Shown piece after piece: positions 10,853-20,582 of a stretch of DNA of 64,000 bases. Every line of letters begins with the position of its first letter. Within the stretch, counting starts at the first letter, position 1. The DNA lies in contig JAUHYW010000009.1 of NCBI GenBank assembly GCA_030426085.1, forward strand, positions 1-64,000. The letters run 5' to 3'. The translations under genes and the position numbers were made by a program. This stretch comes from a bacterium. Lineage in GTDB: Bacteria; Myxococcota_A; Bradymonadia; UBA7976; UBA1532. Below the pieces are notes generated by a model. The model had not been told where the DNA came from. It saw only the letters and a program-made list of their open reading frames with translations, and made no database searches.

Positions 10853-12949
10853 ATGGCTCGACTGGACGAGAAGCGCCGCGGGGCGATCCTGGAGTGCCTG
10901 ATCGCGCTGGGGTTCGGGGCGCCGGACGCCGAACACCTGCTGTGGGCCCCGAGCGCGCTGCGCGATCTGCGCGCGCGGATACCGAGCGCAGCGCGCCCGC
11001 GAGATCGGCTTGTGGCTGCGCTCATCGAGCTGGACCAGCTCCCCGCCACCGACGGTCGCGACCCGCTCATGGCCTTCCTGCGGCACGCGTTCTCGCTGCG
11101 GCCGCCCGAAGATCCGACCGTGAAGCGCCTCGCCGAGCTGATCCGAGCGGTCGACCGGCGCCGTGACCTGGCCCTGATCCGCCGGCTGGGGCCACATAGG
11201 CTGCGGGGCAAGGAGCTGACAGTCCAGCTCGAGCGGCAGGGTGATCAGGTCCAGGTGAGCTGGCATGTCGGCGGACGCACGCTGGGGCTCGCGCCGCGAC
11301 GCTACCCGGCCCGTCACCTCGACGAGCCCCCGCCCGAGGCGCTGATGTACGCGCTCTTCCCCCCACTGGCCGACGGCCGCCCGCCCGAGCCGGAGCCGGT
11401 CATGCTGGCGCTCGGCCCTTCGCCATCGCCGCTGGGCTATCACGCCCGCCTCCGAATCTGCGCCGACGACCCGGCCTGGGCCCGACTGCCCTGGCGCGAG
11501 CTGCGCTGGCACGGCGAGCGCCTGGTGGACGGGCAGTCCCCGTGGACGATCGAGCTCGTCGGGCAGGTCGAGCCGGCCTTCGACGTCGCCTTGGCCCGGG
11601 TCCCGGACGTCGTCGTGCTCGACGCCGACGACGGCGCGCTGACCGCCGACGGCGTCCGCCAGTCGCTGGTGATCGCCAGCCGGACCTACGCCCGGCCGAA
11701 CCACGTCGTCGGGACGGAGCGCCTCGACGCGCTGCCCCGCCTGCTGGGCTCGCGCCGCCGGGCGGTGGTCGTGGCCGCCCTCGACGCCGACCAGCGCGCG
11801 CGCCTGGGCGGGCTGCTGCGGGTCGACGCGTCGGCCCGGCACGCCCCCGCCGCGCTGTGCCTCGTCGGTGGCCCGACCACCCCGCCCGCGGCGCTGCTGG
11901 CCCGCGCCCCGGTCGTCGTGCGCGTCCCCGACGCGGACGCGGCCAAGGCGTGGCTCCGGCGGGTGCTGCTCGAAGACACCGACCCGGTCATCGCGGCCCA
12001 CGACGGCGACCGCCTCGACTCGACACGCCGCGAGGCCCACCCGATCTGCACCGCCTACGCCGGCTGGCGCCCAGGTCGGGTGCGCCGGGACGAGCCGCCG
12101 CCGCCGGGGCTGGTGCTCGATCGCATCGCCCAGCGCAACCGGGTGATGGATCGCTTGCGGCTGCTGATGGGACCCGAAGCGCACCATCACATGGTCGTCT
12201 TCGTGGCGTCGGGGCCGCGGGAGAACTGCATCCACCTGCTGAGCGAACAGCTCGAAGAGCACATCGCCAAGCTGCGCCCTTCGCTGCATCTCGAGGTGTG
12301 GCGGCCGACGCTGCCTCGGGCCGGCACCTATGACATCCACGCGGCGAGCGCCTTCCACACCGCGGCCGTCGCGCAATGCATGCAGGCCGATGTGGGCCAT
12401 GCGACCGCCGGTCTGGCCCGGCACCTGACCCACGGCCACCTGCGGGGGACCGAGCGCATCGTCTGGCTCGACTGGGGTGCCTTCGGGTACGATGCGCCGT
12501 GCCAGCGGCGGCTCAAACCCAGCGAGCTGAGAGCCTGGCTCGACTGGCACGTCCAGTTCGCCGACAGCGCCCGGGCGGCCGGGGTGCGCGTCGCCGCCTT
12601 CATCGCGTGCGAGACGAAGACGTCGAGAGCCATCGATGCCATCAAGGCTGAAGTCACAGCCGCGGTGCTCAAGACCGATCTGACCAGCATCGACTTCGCC
12701 ACGCTCGGCCCGCTCAACGCGGTTGGGATTGACGAGTTGAGGACCTACCTCAACAGCCCCGAAGACAGCCGGGTGCAGCCGGAGCAGGTCGGCAGGCTCA
12801 CCCGCGCCCTACACGACGCGGTGCCCGACGGCCACTTCGAGCGACTCGTCGAACAGCTCGAGCTCGGTCTGCGCATCGGCTGGCAGGATCTCTTGACCCG
12901 CTTGGAGCAATCTGCGTCCGACGACGATGACGACGAGGAGTTCGAGTGA
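10853..12949 (+). CDS. EAD/VMAP-like adaptor of a putative ternary conflict system
   Basis: A 698-residue cytoplasmic protein without known enzymatic motifs. Residues 1-95 form a small helical domain (RGAILECLIALGF, LVAALIELDQLPA, DPLMAFLRHAF) like the effector-associated domains (EADs) of multi-gene conflict systems. Residues about 165-330 contain WARLPWRELRWHGERL and flanking strands reminiscent of the VMAP-C domain. From about residue 425 there is a Rossmann-like region (RNRVMDRLRLLMG, HHMVVFVASGPRENC) that looks like an inactive STAND module because no Walker A is present. It ends in an acidic tail. It overlaps the MoxR gene by four bases (GTGA), and the trio VMAP, MoxR, vWA is the published hallmark of vWA-MoxR-VMAP systems. 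The coding call is firm; the family assignment is inference from motif likeness and neighbourhood. Confidence 0.6.
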   Translation: MARLDEKRRGAILECLIALGFGAPDAEHLLWAPSALRDLRARIPSAARPRDRLVAALIELDQLPATDGRDPLMAFLRHAFSLRPPEDPTVKRLAELIRAVDRRRDLALIRRLGPHRLRGKELTVQLERQGDQVQVSWHVGGRTLGLAPRRYPARHLDEPPPEALMYALFPPLADGRPPEPEPVMLALGPSPSPLGYHARLRICADDPAWARLPWRELRWHGERLVDGQSPWTIELVGQVEPAFDVALARVPDVVVLDADDGALTADGVRQSLVIASRTYARPNHVVGTERLDALPRLLGSRRRAVVVAALDADQRARLGGLLRVDASARHAPAALCLVGGPTTPPAALLARAPVVVRVPDADAAKAWLRRVLLEDTDPVIAAHDGDRLDSTRREAHPICTAYAGWRPGRVRRDEPPPPGLVLDRIAQRNRVMDRLRLLMGPEAHHHMVVFVASGPRENCIHLLSEQLEEHIAKLRPSLHLEVWRPTLPRAGTYDIHAASAFHTAAVAQCMQADVGHATAGLARHLTHGHLRGTERIVWLDWGAFGYDAPCQRRLKPSELRAWLDWHVQFADSARAAGVRVAAFIACETKTSRAIDAIKAEVTAAVLKTDLTSIDFATLGPLNAVGIDELRTYLNSPEDSRVQPEQVGRLTRALHDAVPDGHFERLVEQLELGLRIGWQDLLTRLEQSASDDDDDEEFE

Positions 12950-13848
12950 CCCCCCGCATCCCCCTCGACGGGCGGCCGAAGCCGCCCCGCTTCCGCGACT
13001 TGCAGGCCTCGGCCGACGCCTACCAGCCGCCCGATGGCCTGCTCGACGCCGCCGACGTCGCCGTGGCCCTCGGCGCGCCGCTGCTCGTCACCGGCGAGCC
13101 GGGCACCGGCAAGACCCAGGCGGCGTATTACCTCGCCCGGGTCTACGAGGTGCCCCCGGCGCGCGTCTTTCGCATGGACGTGCGCTCGTCGAGCACCGCC
13201 GAAGACCTGACTGCCCGGCTGGACACCATCGCCTACTTCCACGCGGCCCACGACCCGCTCAACCAGAAGCAGGGGGTCGTGCTCGACAAGAAGCGGTTCT
13301 ACGTCAAGGGCCCGCTGTACCACGCCTATCGCGAGGCCGACGGGGCCAGCGTGGTGCTCGTCGACGAGATCGACAAGGCGCCCCGGGACTTCCCCAACGA
13401 CCTGCTCGATACGCTGGACCAGCACCGGTTCATGATCCGCGAGACCCAGGACGAGGTGCGATTGGACGATGGCATCTCGCCGCCGCTGGTGGTCATCACG
13501 AGCAACACCGAGCGCCGCTTGCCCGATCCCTTCCTGCGGCGGTGCATCTACCATCACATCGAGTTCGATCAGGCGCTGGTCGAGCGGGTGGTGCAGGCCC
13601 ACGCCGATGACTTGCAGGCCGACGGCGCGCTGGTGGACGCGGCGATCGGGCGGTTCCTGGAGCTGCGCGACGACGCGCTGGAGCTGCGCAAGCGGCCCTC
13701 GACCGGCGAGCTGCTCAACTGGCTGCACGCCCTGCACCAACAAGCGGTCGACCCCCGCGCGCTGGCCGACGCGCCGCCCAGCGCGCTGCCGTGCCTGTCG
13801 GCGCTGGTGAAGAGCCACGACGATCTGGACCGGCTGCGGCGGGCGTGA
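12946..13848 (+). CDS. MoxR-family AAA+ ATPase
   Basis: A 300-residue AAA+ ATPase of the MoxR type. Walker A is GEPGTGKT (about 50-57), Walker B VVLVDEIDK (about 136-144), sensor 1 the Asn in VITSN (about 187) and arginine fingers lie in PDPFLRRC (about 198-199). MoxR ATPases usually work with a vWA-domain protein to remodel a target. That pairing is seen here: the next gene encodes a vWA-like protein. The start is the GTG of a GTGA overlap with the preceding gene, which points to translational coupling. It has no membrane segment. Confidence 0.93.
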   Translation: MTPRIPLDGRPKPPRFRDLQASADAYQPPDGLLDAADVAVALGAPLLVTGEPGTGKTQAAYYLARVYEVPPARVFRMDVRSSSTAEDLTARLDTIAYFHAAHDPLNQKQGVVLDKKRFYVKGPLYHAYREADGASVVLVDEIDKAPRDFPNDLLDTLDQHRFMIRETQDEVRLDDGISPPLVVITSNTERRLPDPFLRRCIYHHIEFDQALVERVVQAHADDLQADGALVDAAIGRFLELRDDALELRKRPSTGELLNWLHALHQQAVDPRALADAPPSALPCLSALVKSHDDLDRLRRA

Positions 13849-13863: not shown

Positions 13864-16800
13864 ATGAGCGACAACCCGCCGCTGTTCAGGCCGACGGGCG
13901 ATGACATCACCGCGCTGTGTGCCGCGCTGCGCGGGCGGGGTCTGATCGACGGCGGCGCCGACGTCGAGCTGCGCTTGCGGGCGGCGTTCGCCCGGATGGC
14001 GCCTCGCTCGCGGGATGGCGTCGGGCGGGCGGTGTGCGCGGTGTGCCTGAAGAGCGCCGAGCGCGACGCGCGGGCGGCGTTCGTGGATGCCATCGGGCCG
14101 TGGCTGGCGACGCTCCGGCCGGCGGTGACGCCCACGGTGCAGCGGCGGCCGGCGATGCCTGCGGCCGGCCTCGGAGCCCGGGCCCCGGCCGCGCCCGAGG
14201 CCGAGCCGGCCCCACCGCCCGAGCCGGAGCCAGAGCCGACCCGTCGACCATGGGCGGCGGGCCTCGCGCTCGTGGGCCTCGTGACAGCGGCGGCGGTCTG
14301 GCAGCCCTGGAGCGGGGATCAGCCGCCGCCTTCGAGCGACGCCGGACCGACGGAGGCATCCGACGGTGGGGTGGCATCGGATATCATCGCCGACACCATC
14401 TCCGACCCTATCTCAGATGCCATCCCCGACGCGCCCCCCGCCGACGCCGCGCTGCCCGATGCCAACCCAGACGCGCCCGACCTCGGCCCGCTCGCGCCCC
14501 GGCCGACCCTGGCGTCGGCCCCCGAGACCCGCCCCGGCGCCTGGCCGACCGCCGACACCCTCGCCGCCCTCGGCGCGCTGCTCTTCGCCGCGCTGCTGCT
14601 CGGCGTCCGGGCGTGGACCCTCGAACGCCTGCGCCGCGACGACCCGATCGAGCTGCCGCCGCCCACCCACCCGCCGACGCCGCTGCCCCCGCCGCCGAAC
14701 CCGCCGCCGCGCATCCTGCCGCCCGACGCCGACACCCGGCTGGCGGCCGGCAGCGGCCGGACGACCGCCGACCCCGAGCGCCGGGCGCTCGACGTGCCGG
14801 CCTCGGTCCGGGCCACCGCCGGCCGGGCGGGCAAGATCCCGACGCTGCGCTTCCGCCCCCTGCGCCGCCCCGAGCCGCTGCACCTGTGGATCGACTGGCC
14901 CGCCCGCAGCCGCACGCCGACCCTGGCCCGCGCGGTCGACGAGCTGCGCGCCGCGCTGAAGCGGGGCGGCGTCGCGGCCACCGCGATGCACTTCACCGGG
15001 CTGCCCGACCGCCTCGTCGCCGACGGCCGCCGGCTGAGCGTCGACGGGCTCGCCGCCGATCGGAACCACACCCGGGTCGCCATCATCACCGACGGCCGCT
15101 CGCTGATGCGGGCGAGCGGTCGAGCGCACCGCCGCCTGCTCGACCGGCTGACCCGCTGGCGGGATCTGGCGGTGTTCGTCTTCGGCCGCCTCGACCCCGA
15201 GGCGCTGGCCGAGCACCTCGGGCGCTGCGTCGAGGTGCACCCCGGCGCGTCGCTCCTGGAGTGGCTGGTCCAGATCGAGCCGACCCCGCCGCCGGTGGTC
15301 GACCCCCGCGAGATGCAGATCTGGGCCGGCGCCTGCGCGCTGGCGCCATGCGGGGCCACCGATGACGACGCATTCGAACTGCGTCGGGCGCTCGATCTGC
15401 GGGGCGCGCCGCCGACGGCCATCGAGGCCCTGCGGAGCGACGCGGGTGGCGGGCTGGAGTGGGGGCCGGAGGCGCGGGCAGAGCGTATCGGGTGGCTGTC
15501 GACGCACGCGCCCGAGATGCGAGGCGCGGCTCTGCGCTGGTGGGGGGCCCGCTTCGACGCCACCCGCAGCCAAGGCGGGACGCGCGATCGTCGATGGGAG
15601 ACCGAGGCCGCCGTCATCGGGCTGTGGGCGCCGGGCCACGATGAGCCGACCGCAGCGCAGGTGGAGGCGCACGCGGCGACGCTGGAGCGCCTCGCTGATC
15701 CGCGGGTGCGGGCGCTGATCGGGCACCTCGCCCCGGCCGACAACCCACCGCATGAGCATGCCATCCGACTGCCATGGCGCCGGCAGGACATCCCCGACCC
15801 CGAGACGAGGCGTCGCCTGCGCCGGCTGGGCCTCGCCGCGGCGGTCGGCGGGCTGCCCGAGGACGAGTACGAGCGTCCGCCGCGCAGCCACGCCCTGCTG
15901 GGGCTCGCCTTCGGCCTGCTCGCCGCCGTCGGGCTCGGCCTGCTCGTCGCGCCCCGGGCCGAGACGACGGTCGACGCGCCCTGCGTGCAGATCGAAACCG
16001 CGAGCGACGGCTTGTCGGCCGAGGTCTGGCGCTGCGGGACGGCGGTCGCCGCGCGGCCCACCCACCCGAGCTGGCCGCAGCGCAGCGCGGTGGGGCTGTT
16101 CATCCCATCCGAAGAGCTACCCGCGGCCGAGCTGGCGCTGGCCCTGCTCGATTCGGGCGCGGCGGATGCCATCTGGTGGGGCGCGCTGCCATCCGCCGAC
16201 GCCGCCGACCAGCGCATCGCCGTCGTCCGCGGCGTCGATGCCTGCCCCGCGCAGGCCACCGCCTGCGTGCGCGCCGATGGCGTGCGCGGCCTCGCCGCCG
16301 CGCTGGGCGACGCGCCGATGCCATTGGCCGAGGTCTGGCCCGCGGTCGAGCGGGGCGAGGGCTGGCTGCTCGGTGGGGCCGACGTGGTCGACGCGGGCCC
16401 CGACGCGGCGCCGGACGCGGCCCTGCCCGAGCCCGACGCCGCGTCCCGCAGACCGGACGCCGCCCCCGACGCGGCGCCCGACGGCGGCTCACCCTTCTTG
16501 CGCCTGTCGAGCGTCGAGGTGATCGACGCCGGCCCTGAAGCCTTCGCCATTCGGGTCACCCACCCCGAGGCGACGCCGCTGCGGCCGCAGGCCATCTACC
16601 GCAACGGCATGCTGCTGGTCACGCTCCCCGGCGCTCGCTGGCCGTTCGAGCGGGAGCATCTCCCCAGGACGGATCCCGACATCGCCGCGGTCGAGGCCAG
16701 CAACGACCATCACGTCTATGTCCGCCCGCGCATCCCGCCGCTGACGCTCATTCCTCGCCTGCACGCCGATGCCACCGGCGTGACCATCGCCCTAGACCGG

Positions 16801-17754
16801 GTGAGCCTCCGCCCGACCGTGGATGGTGACCCGCCGGACACAGCGCCCTCGCGGTCTGCCGATGCAGGCCCACCCCCCGACGCCAACCGCCGACCACCCC
16901 GCGACCTCACCGGTACCCATCATCCGCGTATGGTACGAATCCCGGCCGGCACATACACCATCGGCAGTCCTCCAAACGAAGCAGGCCGCTTCTCAGATGA
17001 CATGCCTCGCCGCCGGGTGACGCTGACCCTCACCTATCTGATCGCCGAGACCGAGGTGACCCAAGCGCAGTACCAGCGTGTCATGGACCGTGCTCCCTCG
17101 TACTTCCGAGGCACATCCGAGGACGCTCGCCGCCCGGTAGAGTCGGTGAGTTGGCTGGATGCGGTGACATACTGCAACCGTCTGTCGGCGTTGGAGGGAC
17201 GAAGCCCGGCCTATACCATCGAGGACGAGGGCGTGCGGTGGGTCCCAGAGACCGACGGTTACCGCCTGCCGACGGAAGCCGAGTGGGAGGTCGCTGCGCG
17301 GGCGGGTACAACGACAGCAACATATGCCGGGGACCTCGACATCCTCGGCAGGCGCAACGCCCCCGTGCTGGACGCGATCGCGTGGTACGGGGGCAACAGC
17401 GGCTCAGCACATCGAAGGGCGGTGAACTCCGCTGGTTGGAACGAGAAGCAACACCCCCACGATGGGGCGTCGACACACCCCGTGAGGACCAAGAATCCGA
17501 ATAGGTTGGGTCTCTACGACATGCTGGGCAATGTCCATGAATGGACATGGGACCCCTGGGCCGACCCTCCACCGATGGCTGAGGCGGACCCGATGGGTCC
17601 AGCGCATGGCGACTGGCGCGTCATCAGGGGTGGGGCCTTCGTCGGAATCGCCCACCGGGTACGCGCCTCTGTTCGTGACAGATGGGCACCCAAGGGTCGG
17701 CACAGGAATCTCGGATTCCGACCCGTCCGCTCAGCCCCCCGAACTCGGCCGTAG
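13864..17754 (+). CDS. Three-TM protein with vWA-like and FGE-sulfatase domains
   Basis: A 1296-residue membrane protein. Residues 1-90 are a helical domain; TM1 is about 130-148, TM2 about 231-252 and TM3 about 676-696. Between TM2 and TM3 lies a vWA-like domain (about 335-450: LHLWIDWPARSRTPTL, then RVAIITDGRSLMR) resembling the SAV_2336-type proteins; its metal site is degenerate because DxSxS is not kept. After TM3 come a small domain, an Asp/Pro/Ala linker, a beta-rich AMIN-like stretch (about 880-985) and an FGE-sulfatase domain (about 1017-1290: RIPAGTYTIGSP, YLIAETEVTQAQY, YRLPTEAEWEVAARAG, LGNVHEWTWD, LGFRPVR). Asp/Pro linkers after TM1 and TM3 suggest these parts, including the FGE domain, face the periplasm and the vWA part the cytoplasm. 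The gene starts 15 bases after moxR. Cys residues of true formylglycine enzymes are missing. Base composition drifts to lower GC in the last 850 bases. Confidence 0.8.
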   Translation: MSDNPPLFRPTGDDITALCAALRGRGLIDGGADVELRLRAAFARMAPRSRDGVGRAVCAVCLKSAERDARAAFVDAIGPWLATLRPAVTPTVQRRPAMPAAGLGARAPAAPEAEPAPPPEPEPEPTRRPWAAGLALVGLVTAAAVWQPWSGDQPPPSSDAGPTEASDGGVASDIIADTISDPISDAIPDAPPADAALPDANPDAPDLGPLAPRPTLASAPETRPGAWPTADTLAALGALLFAALLLGVRAWTLERLRRDDPIELPPPTHPPTPLPPPPNPPPRILPPDADTRLAAGSGRTTADPERRALDVPASVRATAGRAGKIPTLRFRPLRRPEPLHLWIDWPARSRTPTLARAVDELRAALKRGGVAATAMHFTGLPDRLVADGRRLSVDGLAADRNHTRVAIITDGRSLMRASGRAHRRLLDRLTRWRDLAVFVFGRLDPEALAEHLGRCVEVHPGASLLEWLVQIEPTPPPVVDPREMQIWAGACALAPCGATDDDAFELRRALDLRGAPPTAIEALRSDAGGGLEWGPEARAERIGWLSTHAPEMRGAALRWWGARFDATRSQGGTRDRRWETEAAVIGLWAPGHDEPTAAQVEAHAATLERLADPRVRALIGHLAPADNPPHEHAIRLPWRRQDIPDPETRRRLRRLGLAAAVGGLPEDEYERPPRSHALLGLAFGLLAAVGLGLLVAPRAETTVDAPCVQIETASDGLSAEVWRCGTAVAARPTHPSWPQRSAVGLFIPSEELPAAELALALLDSGAADAIWWGALPSADAADQRIAVVRGVDACPAQATACVRADGVRGLAAALGDAPMPLAEVWPAVERGEGWLLGGADVVDAGPDAAPDAALPEPDAASRRPDAAPDAAPDGGSPFLRLSSVEVIDAGPEAFAIRVTHPEATPLRPQAIYRNGMLLVTLPGARWPFEREHLPRTDPDIAAVEASNDHHVYVRPRIPPLTLIPRLHADATGVTIALDRVSLRPTVDGDPPDTAPSRSADAGPPPDANRRPPRDLTGTHHPRMVRIPAGTYTIGSPPNEAGRFSDDMPRRRVTLTLTYLIAETEVTQAQYQRVMDRAPSYFRGTSEDARRPVESVSWLDAVTYCNRLSALEGRSPAYTIEDEGVRWVPETDGYRLPTEAEWEVAARAGTTTATYAGDLDILGRRNAPVLDAIAWYGGNSGSAHRRAVNSAGWNEKQHPHDGASTHPVRTKNPNRLGLYDMLGNVHEWTWDPWADPPPMAEADPMGPAHGDWRVIRGGAFVGIAHRVRASVRDRWAPKGRHRNLGFRPVRSAPRTRP
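17377..17405 (+). repeat. Left arm of a perfect 29-bp inverted repeat (FGE core)
   Basis: These 29 bases, inside the FGE domain (encoding IAWYGGNSGS), recur exactly in inverted orientation at 19801-19829. They are the longest identical core of two FGE gene ends that resemble each other over several hundred bases and flank the AAA/nuclease gene. They reflect duplication or gene conversion and could support recombination. Confidence 0.9.
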
Positions 17755-17829
17755 GACTGGGCAGCTCCGGGGAGGTGCCTCTATCACACCGGCCCTGTCT
17801 TCGGCATCCCGCCGTCGGCCGGGCAGCAC

Positions 17830-19389
17830 CTACCCTCGCAGCACCGTGATGGCCCGCCCTCCGGGGCTCGTCGCCTGCCCCAGCCCGACCCGGCTCGCGA
17901 TCGGCGCCCGCCCCGACCGCCGATCGAAGATCACCAGCGCCCCCGAGTCGAGCCCCAGCCGGGCCAGATAGCCATCCAACTGCGTCAACCCACCCTCCAG
18001 CGGATCGGGTTTCTTGTCATGCCACACCTTCAGCTCCAGCCCCTCGCGCTGCCATGACCCATCCGGCAGCGGCCAGCGCACCAGCAGATCGATGGCACCC
18101 CGTCCGATGCCATACTCCCGATCGACAAACCCGCCGCCGTTGACCACCCGCTGCAAGAACGCCATCAGCACGAGCTGCGGCGCGACCTCGTGATAGTCCA
18201 ACTGCGCCGCGACCGCCTCGCCGTGCTGGATCCACCACGCCCCGAACGCCTCCAGCAGCGCCCGCATGTCCAGCCGGCCGTCGGGCGCGGTGAAGCCCTT
18301 CGGCCCGGGCAGGCGCTCCTGCTCGACGGCCACCGCCAGCTCGCGGGCGATGACCTCGCGGTAGATGGGGTTGGCCACCCGGAGCTGTGGATCGGCCACC
18401 ACCAGCCCCAGGTCGCAGGTGTACTCGAAGTCCTCGCGGTAGGTGGGGCTGGCCGCGCTGGCGCCGGCCAACAGCGGCTCGATGATGCGCCGCACCCGCG
18501 GCTCGCGCAGGCGGGCGAGCAGGCTGTCGATGTGGGTGGCCCGCGCGCGGACGAGGCGCCCCGCCGCCGCGTCGACCCGAGCCGGGCCGACCTCGGCGGC
18601 GTCGGCGTGGTGCTCGGCGAGGTCACGGCCGAGGGCGTTGACCAGCCACGGCTGGCCGCCGGTGAGGCGGGCCACGGCGTCGATGGCGGCGTCGGCGTAG
18701 GTCGGGCCGCCGTCGGCCGTGTGCTGGGCGTACAGCGCGGCGACTTCATCGCGGGTGAAGTCGGCGAGCCGCAGCGAGCGGGTCTTGATGTTGAACGGGC
18801 TGCTGGAGCCCAGGTGCTGCGGGTCTCCGCCGGCGGCCGCCTTGTAGTCGCGGACGTCGCGCAGCCCGCAGAGGGCGACCGACCACGGGGCGTGGTCCGG
18901 GCGGTCGGCGTAGAAGTCGCGGAGTTGGGACAGCACCGTGATCAGCGCGTCGCCGGTCAGGACGTCGACCTCGTCGAAGAAGAGGGCCAGCGGGCGGGCC
19001 GCGCGCTGGCACCACGCCGAGAGGCCGGCCGACAGCAAGAAGCGCTCGTGCGCCTCGGGCCACGCGGCGGGGGGCTGGCAGTCGGGGGGCAGGTGCAGGC
19101 GGGCGCGGGTGCGCATGGCGTGCAGGAGGGCGGCTTGTACGCCGGGCAGATCGTCCTGGCGGATGCGGGCGGCCTCGCACGAGAAGTAGAGGGCGGCGAC
19201 GTCGCCCGCGGCGGTGAGCTGCGTGGCCAGGGCCCGGAGGGTGGTGGTCTTGCCGGTCTGGCGGGGGGCGTGGAGGGCGAAGTACGCGCCCTGGGCGACG
19301 AGGTCGGGGACCTCGGGCAGCCGAGGCGCGGGCGGGATCATGTAGTGGAAGCGGGGGTCGCAGGGGCCGGCGACGTTGAAGAACTTCAT
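17830..19389 (-). CDS. AAA-like ATPase with C-terminal PD-(D/E)XK nuclease domain
   Basis: A 519-residue protein. The N-terminal half is a AAA-like ATPase: Walker A APRQTGKTT (41-49) and Walker B PLALFFDEVDVL (Asp139, Glu140). A helical part follows (TGGQPWLVNALGRDLAEHH). The last 100 residues hold a PD-(D/E)XK nuclease signature: Asp434 in GRGAIDLLVRW and Glu452-x-Lys454 in LELKVWHDKK. Proteins of this kind are widespread beside defence and conflict genes, but no defined function is established. The start at 19389 begins just before the conserved MKFFNVAGP; no good Shine-Dalgarno is seen. It lies 62 bases after the FGE gene and is likely the last gene of a three-gene - strand operon. It meets the vWA-FGE gene tail to tail (75 bases). 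Confidence 0.85.
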   Translation of the reverse strand: MKFFNVAGPCDPRFHYMIPPAPRLPEVPDLVAQGAYFALHAPRQTGKTTTLRALATQLTAAGDVAALYFSCEAARIRQDDLPGVQAALLHAMRTRARLHLPPDCQPPAAWPEAHERFLLSAGLSAWCQRAARPLALFFDEVDVLTGDALITVLSQLRDFYADRPDHAPWSVALCGLRDVRDYKAAAGGDPQHLGSSSPFNIKTRSLRLADFTRDEVAALYAQHTADGGPTYADAAIDAVARLTGGQPWLVNALGRDLAEHHADAAEVGPARVDAAAGRLVRARATHIDSLLARLREPRVRRIIEPLLAGASAASPTYREDFEYTCDLGLVVADPQLRVANPIYREVIARELAVAVEQERLPGPKGFTAPDGRLDMRALLEAFGAWWIQHGEAVAAQLDYHEVAPQLVLMAFLQRVVNGGGFVDREYGIGRGAIDLLVRWPLPDGSWQREGLELKVWHDKKPDPLEGGLTQLDGYLARLGLDSGALVIFDRRSGRAPIASRVGLGQATSPGGRAITVLRG

Positions 19390-19451
19390 GGGGGGCAATC
19401 TACGACGGGCGGCGGCGGGGCGAAAGGCTGGTCGGCGGTTGAACCCGGGTC

Positions 19452-20582
19452 CTACGGCCGAACTCGGGGGGTGGAGCGCACGGGCCGGAACCCGAGGACC
19501 CAGTACCGGCCGCCGGGGGACCACCAGATGCGGAAGGCGGCGCGCACCCTGTGGGCATTGTCGTCGAACGACCCACCCCGGATGACACGCCAGCCGCCGC
19601 GGGCGGGGCCCGACGGGTCGGCCTCGGCCGTCGGCGGGGTCGACGCGTACCAGTCCCAGGTCCACTCGTAGACGTTGCCCAGCATGTCGTACAGGCCCCA
19701 TGCGTTCGGCCGTTTGCCCTTCACCGGGTGGGTCGACGCCTGCGTGTGCGGGTGCTGCTTGCCCTCCCAGCCGCTGGAGTCCAGCGCCTTGGGGTGCGCC
19801 GAGCCGCTGTTGCCCCCGTACCACGCGATGGCGTCCAGGATGGGCGCGTTGCGCTGGCCCAGGATGTCCAGGTCGCCGACGTAGGTCGCCGTCGTCGCGC
19901 CCGCCCGCGCCGCCACCTCCCACTCGGCCTCCGTCGGCAGGCGATAGCCGCCGGCCTCCGGGTCCTCCCAGCGCACGTCCGTCCCCTTGATGACATAGGC
20001 TTCTTTCAGCCCTTCCAGCTCCGAGAGTCGGTTGCAGTACGTCGCCGTGTCCAGCCAGCTCACCTGCTCCACCGGGCGCCGGGCGTCCTCGGGAGTGCCC
20101 TGGAAATATGAGGGGTTGCGGCCCATCACCGCCGCATACTGCGCCTGTGTCACCGGCGTCTCGGCGATCAGGTAGCCCCGGGTCAGCGTCACTTCGCGGC
20201 GAGGCATGTCCCATGACAGCCTGCCGGCCTCGCCCTCGGGGCTGCCGATGACATGCACGCCGGGCGCCACGGCGATCAAGGCCGGCCGGTGCTCGGATTC
20301 GGGGATGACTTCGGGCGCTGGCGCGCTCGATGGCTCCTCCCGCTCAGCCGACCACCCCGGGATGACAGGCAGAGCCGGCGCCTCCTCGACCGGCGCCGAC
20401 ACCTCGACCCGCCGCGCCCCGACCAGCCCCGCCACCGCCAGCCCGCACCCGATCCCCGCGCCCAGCAGCGGATACCCGGCCCCGATCACCGCCGCCGGCG
20501 CCAGCCCGATCCCCAAGCCGAGCAGCGGCCCGCCGACGGGGTGCAGGCGATCCAGCGGGTGATCCGGGGCGTCGTCAGCCAT
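19452..20582 (-). CDS. Membrane-anchored FGE-sulfatase-domain protein
   Basis: A 376-residue protein. Two hydrophobic Gly/Ala-rich segments (about 17-36 and 38-56) form an N-terminal membrane hairpin or anchor, followed by a Pro/Glu linker and an FGE-sulfatase domain from about residue 100 (YLIAETPVTQAQY, NPSYFQGTPEDARRPVEQVS, YRLPTEAEWEVAARAG, LGNVYEWTWDWY, WRVIRGGSF, LGFRPVR). It is a close paralogue of the FGE domain of the convergent vWA gene: the stretch from YRLPTEAEW to GGNSGSAH is nearly identical, whereas the last 40 residues differ most. The two cysteines needed for formylglycine formation are absent, so a binding or recognition role is more likely than catalysis. It sits 48 bases after the ClpV-like gene. 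Confidence 0.85.
   Translation of the reverse strand: MADDAPDHPLDRLHPVGGPLLGLGIGLAPAAVIGAGYPLLGAGIGCGLAVAGLVGARRVEVSAPVEEAPALPVIPGWSAEREEPSSAPAPEVIPESEHRPALIAVAPGVHVIGSPEGEAGRLSWDMPRREVTLTRGYLIAETPVTQAQYAAVMGRNPSYFQGTPEDARRPVEQVSWLDTATYCNRLSELEGLKEAYVIKGTDVRWEDPEAGGYRLPTEAEWEVAARAGATTATYVGDLDILGQRNAPILDAIAWYGGNSGSAHPKALDSSGWEGKQHPHTQASTHPVKGKRPNAWGLYDMLGNVYEWTWDWYASTPPTAEADPSGPARGGWRVIRGGSFDDNAHRVRAAFRIWWSPGGRYWVLGFRPVRSTPRVRP
19801..19829 (-). repeat. Right arm of the 29-bp inverted repeat
   Basis: Exact reverse complement of 17377-17405, inside the second FGE domain. The flanking bases on both sides differ between the two copies, so the identity stops exactly at 29 bases, within a longer stretch of high similarity. 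Confidence 0.9.

What the first reader, a model, noticed from the sequence alone, without database searches (positions are those of the whole stretch)
13864..17754. vWA-like and FGE domains on opposite sides of a three-helix membrane protein
Hydrophobic segments at residues about 130-148, 231-252 and 676-696 place the degenerate vWA domain (next to cytoplasmic MoxR) and the FGE domain on opposite sides. Asp/Pro linkers follow TM1 and TM3. Classical ternary systems are largely cytoplasmic, so a version with an outward recognition domain and an AMIN-like stretch would be an outside-in signalling form.
Basis: inference. Interest (0 to 1): 0.7.

Follow-up and report, generated by a model that had tools for sequence, protein, structure and literature searches.

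The report
Three-helix membrane receptor, MoxR ternary system
A bacterial protein that crosses the inner membrane three times keeps its ATPase-partner (vWA-like) domain inside the cell and a lectin-like recognition domain outside; it belongs to a small family in which at least one relative varies that recognition domain with a mutating reverse transcriptase, so it looks like the outward-facing sensor of a known kind of bacterial immune system.

Summary
The 1296-aa protein (13864-17754, +) has three membrane helices, at about residues 127-146, 232-253 and 677-699 (0 of 200 shuffles give three). All 12 family members examined keep them, and the positive-inside rule (142 K/R inside, 59 outside; 12 of 12 proteins) puts the vWA-like domain in the cytoplasm and the FGE domain outside. 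The vWA call holds: the model resembles NorD, the vWA partner of a MoxR ATPase, but the MIDAS serines are lost throughout the family. The AMIN-like stretch found no support. Membrane-bound iSTAND MoxR-vWA systems with FGE ("FGS") domains are already published, so the form is not new. New here: the FGE domain is of the DGR variable-protein type (best solved relative: TvpA). A distant relative (Nitrosomonas-like) has the same architecture in a complete DGR, with 24 of 24 template/variable differences at template adenines. Several relatives show DGR-like variable-region pairs without a detected template. Most loci also encode a partner FGE protein, often with a two-helix hairpin that would face inward. 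The window's own pair has no template or RT and no sign of recent diversification. Best reading: outward receptor of an iSTAND-type ternary defence system.

The parts
10853..12949 (+). Third component, 698 aa: all-helical N-terminal domain (weakly EAD8/EAD5-like), CHAT-like middle with catalytic residues apparently lost, C-terminal AAA/STAND-like domain without Walker A (iSTAND-like)
   Evidence: EAD8 E 0.022, below cut-off; relatives: CHAT 2.5e-8 in L078 and 2.6e-6 in L132, iSTAND 0.046 (sub-threshold) in L132; TIR/SEFIR-fused versions at the same place in L057, L075, L079, L081; model matches AAA/STAND folds incl. Apaf-1; no GxxxxGK
12946..13848 (+). MoxR-type AAA+ ATPase, 300 aa, Walker A GEPGTGKT and Walker B VVLVDE intact
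   Evidence: Pfam AAA_5 5.9e-14; motifs; 44 of 58 related genomes have a homologue, the closest ones beside a homologue of the finding's protein
13864..14118 (+). N-terminal helical domain (residues about 1-85), CoxE-like
   Evidence: hhalign of family alignment A6 with a MoxR-linked CoxE-type vWA protein, P 9.7e-5
14242..14301 (+). TM1 (residues 127-146)
14311..14538 (+). Asp/Pro-rich loop between TM1 and TM2, predicted outside
14557..14622 (+). TM2 (residues 232-253)
14851..15273 (+). Degenerate vWA-like domain (about residues 330-470), predicted cytoplasmic
   Evidence: model pLDDT about 58-93 by block, and Foldseek hits to NorD and other vWA domains; MIDAS comparison; hhalign to a CoxE-type vWA protein P 0.0022
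15301..15873 (+). Helical region after the vWA (about residues 480-670), resembling the published vWA-L linker
   Evidence: predicted helices; vWA-L described in PMC8195603
15892..15960 (+). TM3 (residues 677-699)
15961..16923 (+). Outer segment between TM3 and FGE, with Asp/Pro/Ala linker; the suggested AMIN-like stretch lies here and is unsupported
16924..17730 (+). FGE/C-type-lectin-fold domain, DGR variable-protein type, lacking the two catalytic cysteines
   Evidence: Pfam 3.4e-45; best PDB sequence hit TvpA 1.8e-29; best fold hit TvpA 5.2e-9; one Cys, at 1104, none in the C-terminal motif
17626..17720 (+). Stretch homologous to the DGR variable region (RGG..GFR)
   Evidence: positions mutable in the L130 template differ 11 of 17 between the window's two FGE genes, against 3 of 24 neighbouring positions, p 8e-4; but no recent codon-position signature
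19452..20582 (-). Convergent partner: weak two-helix hairpin followed by an FGE domain, predicted to face inward
   Evidence: Pfam FGE 7.8e-44; inverted 72-78% DNA match to 16959-17757; similar hairpins in FGE partners of L074, L075, L078, L081, and in L133
17830..19400 (-). AAA ATPase with a C-terminal nuclease-like part, lying between the two FGE genes; start approximate. Probably unrelated or inserted
   Evidence: Pfam AAA_22/AAA_35; position; nuclease-like part by inspection only

Best explanation
The protein is the vWA component of an iSTAND-type MoxR-vWA ternary conflict system, built as a membrane receptor. Shown by computation: three helices, with N-terminus and degenerate vWA inside and FGE/C-type-lectin domain outside; MoxR and third component encoded just upstream; the three-helix layout in all 12 family members examined; the FGE domain is of DGR variable-protein type, and in the L130 relative a complete DGR diversifies it. 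Inferred: the FGE domain binds a ligand at the cell surface or in the periplasm (phage particle, neighbour cell or envelope damage). Binding is passed through TM3 and the helical vWA-L region to the vWA domain, whose lost MIDAS suggests a structural rather than metal-dependent contact. The MoxR ring then remodels the complex and frees the third component, whose N-terminal module is the output: TIR or CHAT in relatives, an EAD-like adaptor here. A convergent FGE protein with a two-helix hairpin probably gives a second, inward sensor. In the window itself diversification is probably no longer active, or depends on parts missing from the assembly.
For: Topology. vWA fold with NorD, a MoxR partner, as best vWA match. 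CoxE-like N-terminal domain: as described for iSTAND vWA components. Operon with intact MoxR. Third component with TIR, CHAT or adaptor in relatives; STAND/AAA-like fold. DGR: TvpA hit; L130 DGR with bAvd and RT, VR1 10 of 10 and VR2 14 of 14 differences at template adenines (chance 3e-6 and 2e-8). VR pairs in L074, L075, L078, L081, L018: 8 of 90 differences at third codon positions (sum). Paired inward/outward targets also published.
Against: No experiment. The iSTAND match of the third component is sub-threshold (14.5 against 24 bits, in a relative). The vWA model has low overall confidence (pLDDT 53.7, pTM 0.30), and profile comparison of the vWA region is weak (P 0.0022, probability 13%). 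No template or RT near the window's genes, and its FGE pair differs at all codon positions. Defence role and direction of signalling are analogy. TM1 is marginal by energy (0.0 kcal/mol).
Confidence: 0.6

Rival explanations
1. Inside-out: the cytoplasmic third component or MoxR senses the invader (as Kaur et al. propose) and the FGE domain is the effector, acting in the periplasm or on the envelope.
For: Kaur et al. place the C-terminal vWA-linked domains as effectors, and the iSTAND proteins are predicted to be the invader-sensing component. L079 ends right after TM3 without FGE, so the core can exist without it.
Against: DGR diversification of FGE fits binding of changing ligands better than an effector; the third component bears TIR or CHAT effector-type domains; no catalytic cysteines.
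Confidence: 0.2
2. Kin recognition or cell-cell adhesion receptor rather than phage defence: the outward variable FGE domain recognises neighbour cells, with a MoxR-driven response.
For: Doré et al. raise this alternative; family found mostly in genomes of the window's phylum among those searched; outward position.
Against: TIR and CHAT outputs, EAD-like adaptors and an inward-facing partner sensor are typical of cell-death defence.
Confidence: 0.15
3. Housekeeping MoxR-vWA chaperone for an envelope protein or metalloenzyme (NorQD/CoxDE-like), with FGE as a docking module.
For: Best vWA structural match is NorD; the N-terminal domain is CoxE-like.
Against: Patchy distribution (8 of 379 phylum genomes), TIR-fused partners and DGR link; no metalloenzyme partner seen in the operon.
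Confidence: 0.05

Closest known systems
[quoted passage not shown] 2020, PMC7159879)
   Same: MoxR, vWA with CoxE-like helical N-terminal domain, TM segments, C-terminal FGS/FGE domain, third component with TIR, caspase-like or EAD-like N-terminus
   Different: Here the vWA MIDAS is degenerate and a fixed three-helix layout puts FGE outside; the iSTAND domain is too divergent to reach the Pfam cut-off
MoxR-linked DGR targets of Thiohalocapsa PB-PSB1, DGR 9 (Doré et al. 2024, PMC10907252)
   Same: DGR target next to MoxR with an unassigned N-terminal extension, multi-TM targets, one CLec domain periplasmic and one cytoplasmic
   Different: The extension is resolved here as CoxE-like domain plus degenerate vWA plus helical linker; the window's locus lacks RT and template. 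Direct homology to DGR 9 was not tested
TvpA, Treponema denticola DGR variable protein (PDB 2y3c)
   Same: Closest solved relative of the FGE domain by sequence (1.8e-29) and fold (5.2e-9)
   Different: Not fused to a membrane vWA protein
NorD/CoxE-type vWA partners of MoxR ATPases
   Same: vWA fold, helical N-terminal domain, neighbouring MoxR gene
   Different: MIDAS motif kept in the CoxE-type comparison protein L062; no FGE domain and no membrane helices in that protein

Membership tests
iSTAND MoxR-vWA ternary system | MoxR AAA+ ATPase beside the vWA gene | tested here: met
   12946-13848, Walker A and B intact
iSTAND MoxR-vWA ternary system | vWA component, with CoxE-like helical N-terminal domain | tested here: met
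   Fold match to NorD and vWA domains, N-terminal hhalign P 9.7e-5; vWA degenerate; overall model confidence is low
iSTAND MoxR-vWA ternary system | Third component with inactive STAND domain | tested here: inconclusive
   AAA/STAND-like fold, no Walker A; Pfam iSTAND only E 0.046 in relative L132
iSTAND MoxR-vWA ternary system | Variable C-terminal domain such as FGS/FGE, TM segments in a subset | tested here: met
   Pfam FGE; three TM helices
VMAP ternary system | VMAP third component | tested here: not met
   No VMAP family hit on the third components
DGR target (window gene itself) | C-type-lectin-fold domain with C-terminal variable region | tested here: met
DGR target (window gene itself) | Template repeat and RT in cis or elsewhere in the genome | tested here: not met
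   No template for the window's region found in the assembly; RTs only on other contigs; assembly about 95% complete
DGR target (window gene itself) | Adenine-directed substitutions | tested here: not met
   Differences of the window pair fall on all codon positions; met in relative L130
Formylglycine-generating enzyme | Catalytic cysteine pair in the C-terminal motif | tested here: not met
   One Cys, at 1104, outside the motif
Anti-phage defence | Protection from phage | not testable with these tools
   No assay; no PADLOC hit for the finding's protein

The most novel reading that the evidence does not exclude
A conserved class of transmembrane immune receptor in which a MoxR-vWA chaperone couple works as a signal transducer across the membrane: an outward DGR-type lectin sensor on a three-helix vWA protein, paired with an inward two-helix lectin sensor made from the same diversifying cassette, firing a TIR/CHAT/adaptor-iSTAND output.
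Probability: 0.4. Interest if true: 0.75.

Novelty: new member of a known kind. Interest (0 to 1): 0.5.

Why it matters
It gives a concrete, conserved topology for the membrane-bound branch of ternary conflict systems, offers an identity (degenerate vWA module) for the kind of N-terminal extension left unassigned in MoxR-linked DGR targets, and suggests that cells display a hypervariable lectin domain outside while reading it out with a cytoplasmic AAA+ machine. That is directly testable and bears on whether bacteria have surface receptors with somatic diversification.

Tried and rejected
Template repeat for the window's variable region: none in the own genome by DNA search, alone or in a pooled query with eight other regions. 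AMIN domain: none. Pfam/NCBIfam/PADLOC names for the vWA region: none. Active FGE enzyme: rejected for lack of cysteines. VMAP system: no VMAP hit on the third components. The RT-linked FGE genes of the own genome at C70 and C73 as donors for the window: their variable regions do not match the window's closely. First shuffle test invalid through a variable-name clash, redone. EAD partner search in the own genome: one weak hit (5e-4) in a 553-aa ORF on C11, not conclusive.

Full report
OBSERVATION. The 1296-aa ORF at 13864-17754 (+) is open and follows a MoxR gene by 15 bases. None of 200 shuffled versions had three. The energy coefficients were entered from memory of the published scale, so the values are approximate.

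FAMILY. MoxR homologues in related genomes led to loci with the same architecture, and a profile of the vWA region extended the set: 8 of 379 genomes of the phylum, matches in the gammaproteobacterium Candidatus Methylumidiphilus, and weak matches in two other genomes of that class. Record titles of relatives place the window's host among uncultured Myxococcota (inference). Twelve members, the window protein included, were examined: all have three membrane helices in the same order. K/R counts beside the helices total 142 on the predicted inner side and 59 on the outer side, in the same direction in all twelve (p 2.4e-4). Asp/Pro/Ala linkers like those after TM1 and TM3 are associated with exported or membrane proteins in loci of this and related genomes. 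Hence: N-terminus in, loop out, vWA in, FGE out.

DOMAINS. The N-terminal 85 residues align with the helical N-terminus of a CoxE-type, MoxR-linked vWA protein (P 9.7e-5). The region 330-470 is modelled as an alpha/beta domain, mostly at local pLDDT 70-93, although the whole model is poor (53.7); its Foldseek matches include NorD of the NorQD complex and several vWA domains. In ten members the motif-I Asp is invariant and TDG is kept in nine, while the MIDAS serines are lost. A helical region follows, like the published vWA-L. The FGE domain has TvpA, a DGR variable protein, as its best solved relative by sequence and fold, and lacks the catalytic cysteines. In two members, L079 and L056, the protein ends right after TM3 (L056 lies at a contig end).

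NEIGHBOURS. MoxR has intact Walker motifs. The third component (10853-12949) has relatives with N-terminal TIR/SEFIR (L057, L075, L079, L081), with CHAT (L078, L132) and with an MGS domain (L080). Its C-terminal half resembles AAA/STAND folds and lacks a Walker A; a sub-threshold iSTAND match appears in L132. By inspection of the alignment, the CHAT His and Cys are kept in L078 and L056 and lost in the window protein, whose N-terminus is weakly EAD8/EAD5-like.

DIVERSIFICATION. In L074, L075, L078, L081 and L057 the last 130 or so bases of the vWA-FGE gene recur, inverted, in a convergent FGE gene. In four of these (all but L057), together with the RT-bearing locus L018 of the own genome, 8 of 90 differences are at third codon positions, as expected for a template rich in AAY codons. 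In L130 (a large contig of another genome, Nitrosomonas-like from an AmoC-like gene nearby; inference) the DGR is complete: MoxR, vWA-FGE target, bAvd (3.3e-14), RT and a second FGE target with a signal-peptide-like start; the template overlaps the 3' end of the RT gene, and all 24 differences to the two variable regions are at template adenines. For the other loci no template was found in the assemblies, although RTs exist elsewhere in those genomes. In the window the two FGE genes are 72-78% alike; positions mutable in L130 differ more often than their neighbours (11 of 17 against 3 of 24, p 8e-4), but third positions differ as much as others. This points to an old relationship without recent template-driven change. 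GC3 drops from about 0.92 to about 0.72 from residue 961 on, so the FGE module may have been acquired separately; some relatives show a drop as well.

PARTNER. The FGE partner proteins of the window, L074, L075, L078 and L081, and the FGE protein of L133, have two close hydrophobic segments before the FGE domain, which would keep FGE in the cytoplasm; energies are marginal for some, the window's included. L130's partner has a signal-peptide-like start instead, and two FGE neighbours in L057 show no such hairpin. Doré et al. describe a MoxR-linked locus with one periplasmic and one cytoplasmic CLec target.

MECHANISM AND NOVELTY. Shown: topology (by computation), domain relationships, operon, DGR in a relative. 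Inferred: ligand binding outside, transmission by TM3 and the vWA region, MoxR remodelling, activation of the third component. Kaur et al. already report iSTAND systems with TM segments, FGS domains and TIR, caspase-like or EAD-bearing third components; this is therefore best taken as a member of that kind with a clearly defined outward topology, not a new kind, with the caveat that the iSTAND domain itself is only weakly supported. Most novel open reading: a two-sided, diversifying receptor pair read out by a MoxR-vWA couple.

Noticed in passing
19452-20582 (-): Convergent FGE protein with an N-terminal two-helix hairpin, inverted DNA match to the finding's gene; probable inward-facing partner sensor.
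   Followed up: yes
17830-19400 (-), start approximate: AAA ATPase with nuclease-like C-terminus between the two FGE genes, where relatives L057, L074 and L078 have a small HTH gene.
   Followed up: partly
L018 6383-8806 (own genome, contig C70): Two FGE genes with 91% identical inverted 3' ends flank a short RT gene and another ORF between them; no template found; looks like a damaged DGR.
   Followed up: partly
L019 2113-4647 and 4786-5721 (own genome, contig C73): TIR-kinase-TM-FGE gene next to an RT gene; its variable region is 89-91% identical to an FGE gene on contig C173.
   Followed up: partly
L080 6185-8566 (-): Third component with an N-terminal MGS (PurH-like) domain in place of TIR: a possible nucleotide-related effector or sensor.
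   Followed up: no
own genome: 85 FGE-domain matches in a 10.1-Mb genome, many in long ORFs.
   Followed up: no
L074, L075, L078, L081 (VR pairs): VR pairs with a DGR codon signature but no detectable template anywhere in the assembly; either the template is missing from the assemblies or the cassette was lost.
   Followed up: partly
16744-17754: GC3 drops from about 0.92 to about 0.72 in the FGE module of the finding's gene, suggesting module exchange.
   Followed up: partly
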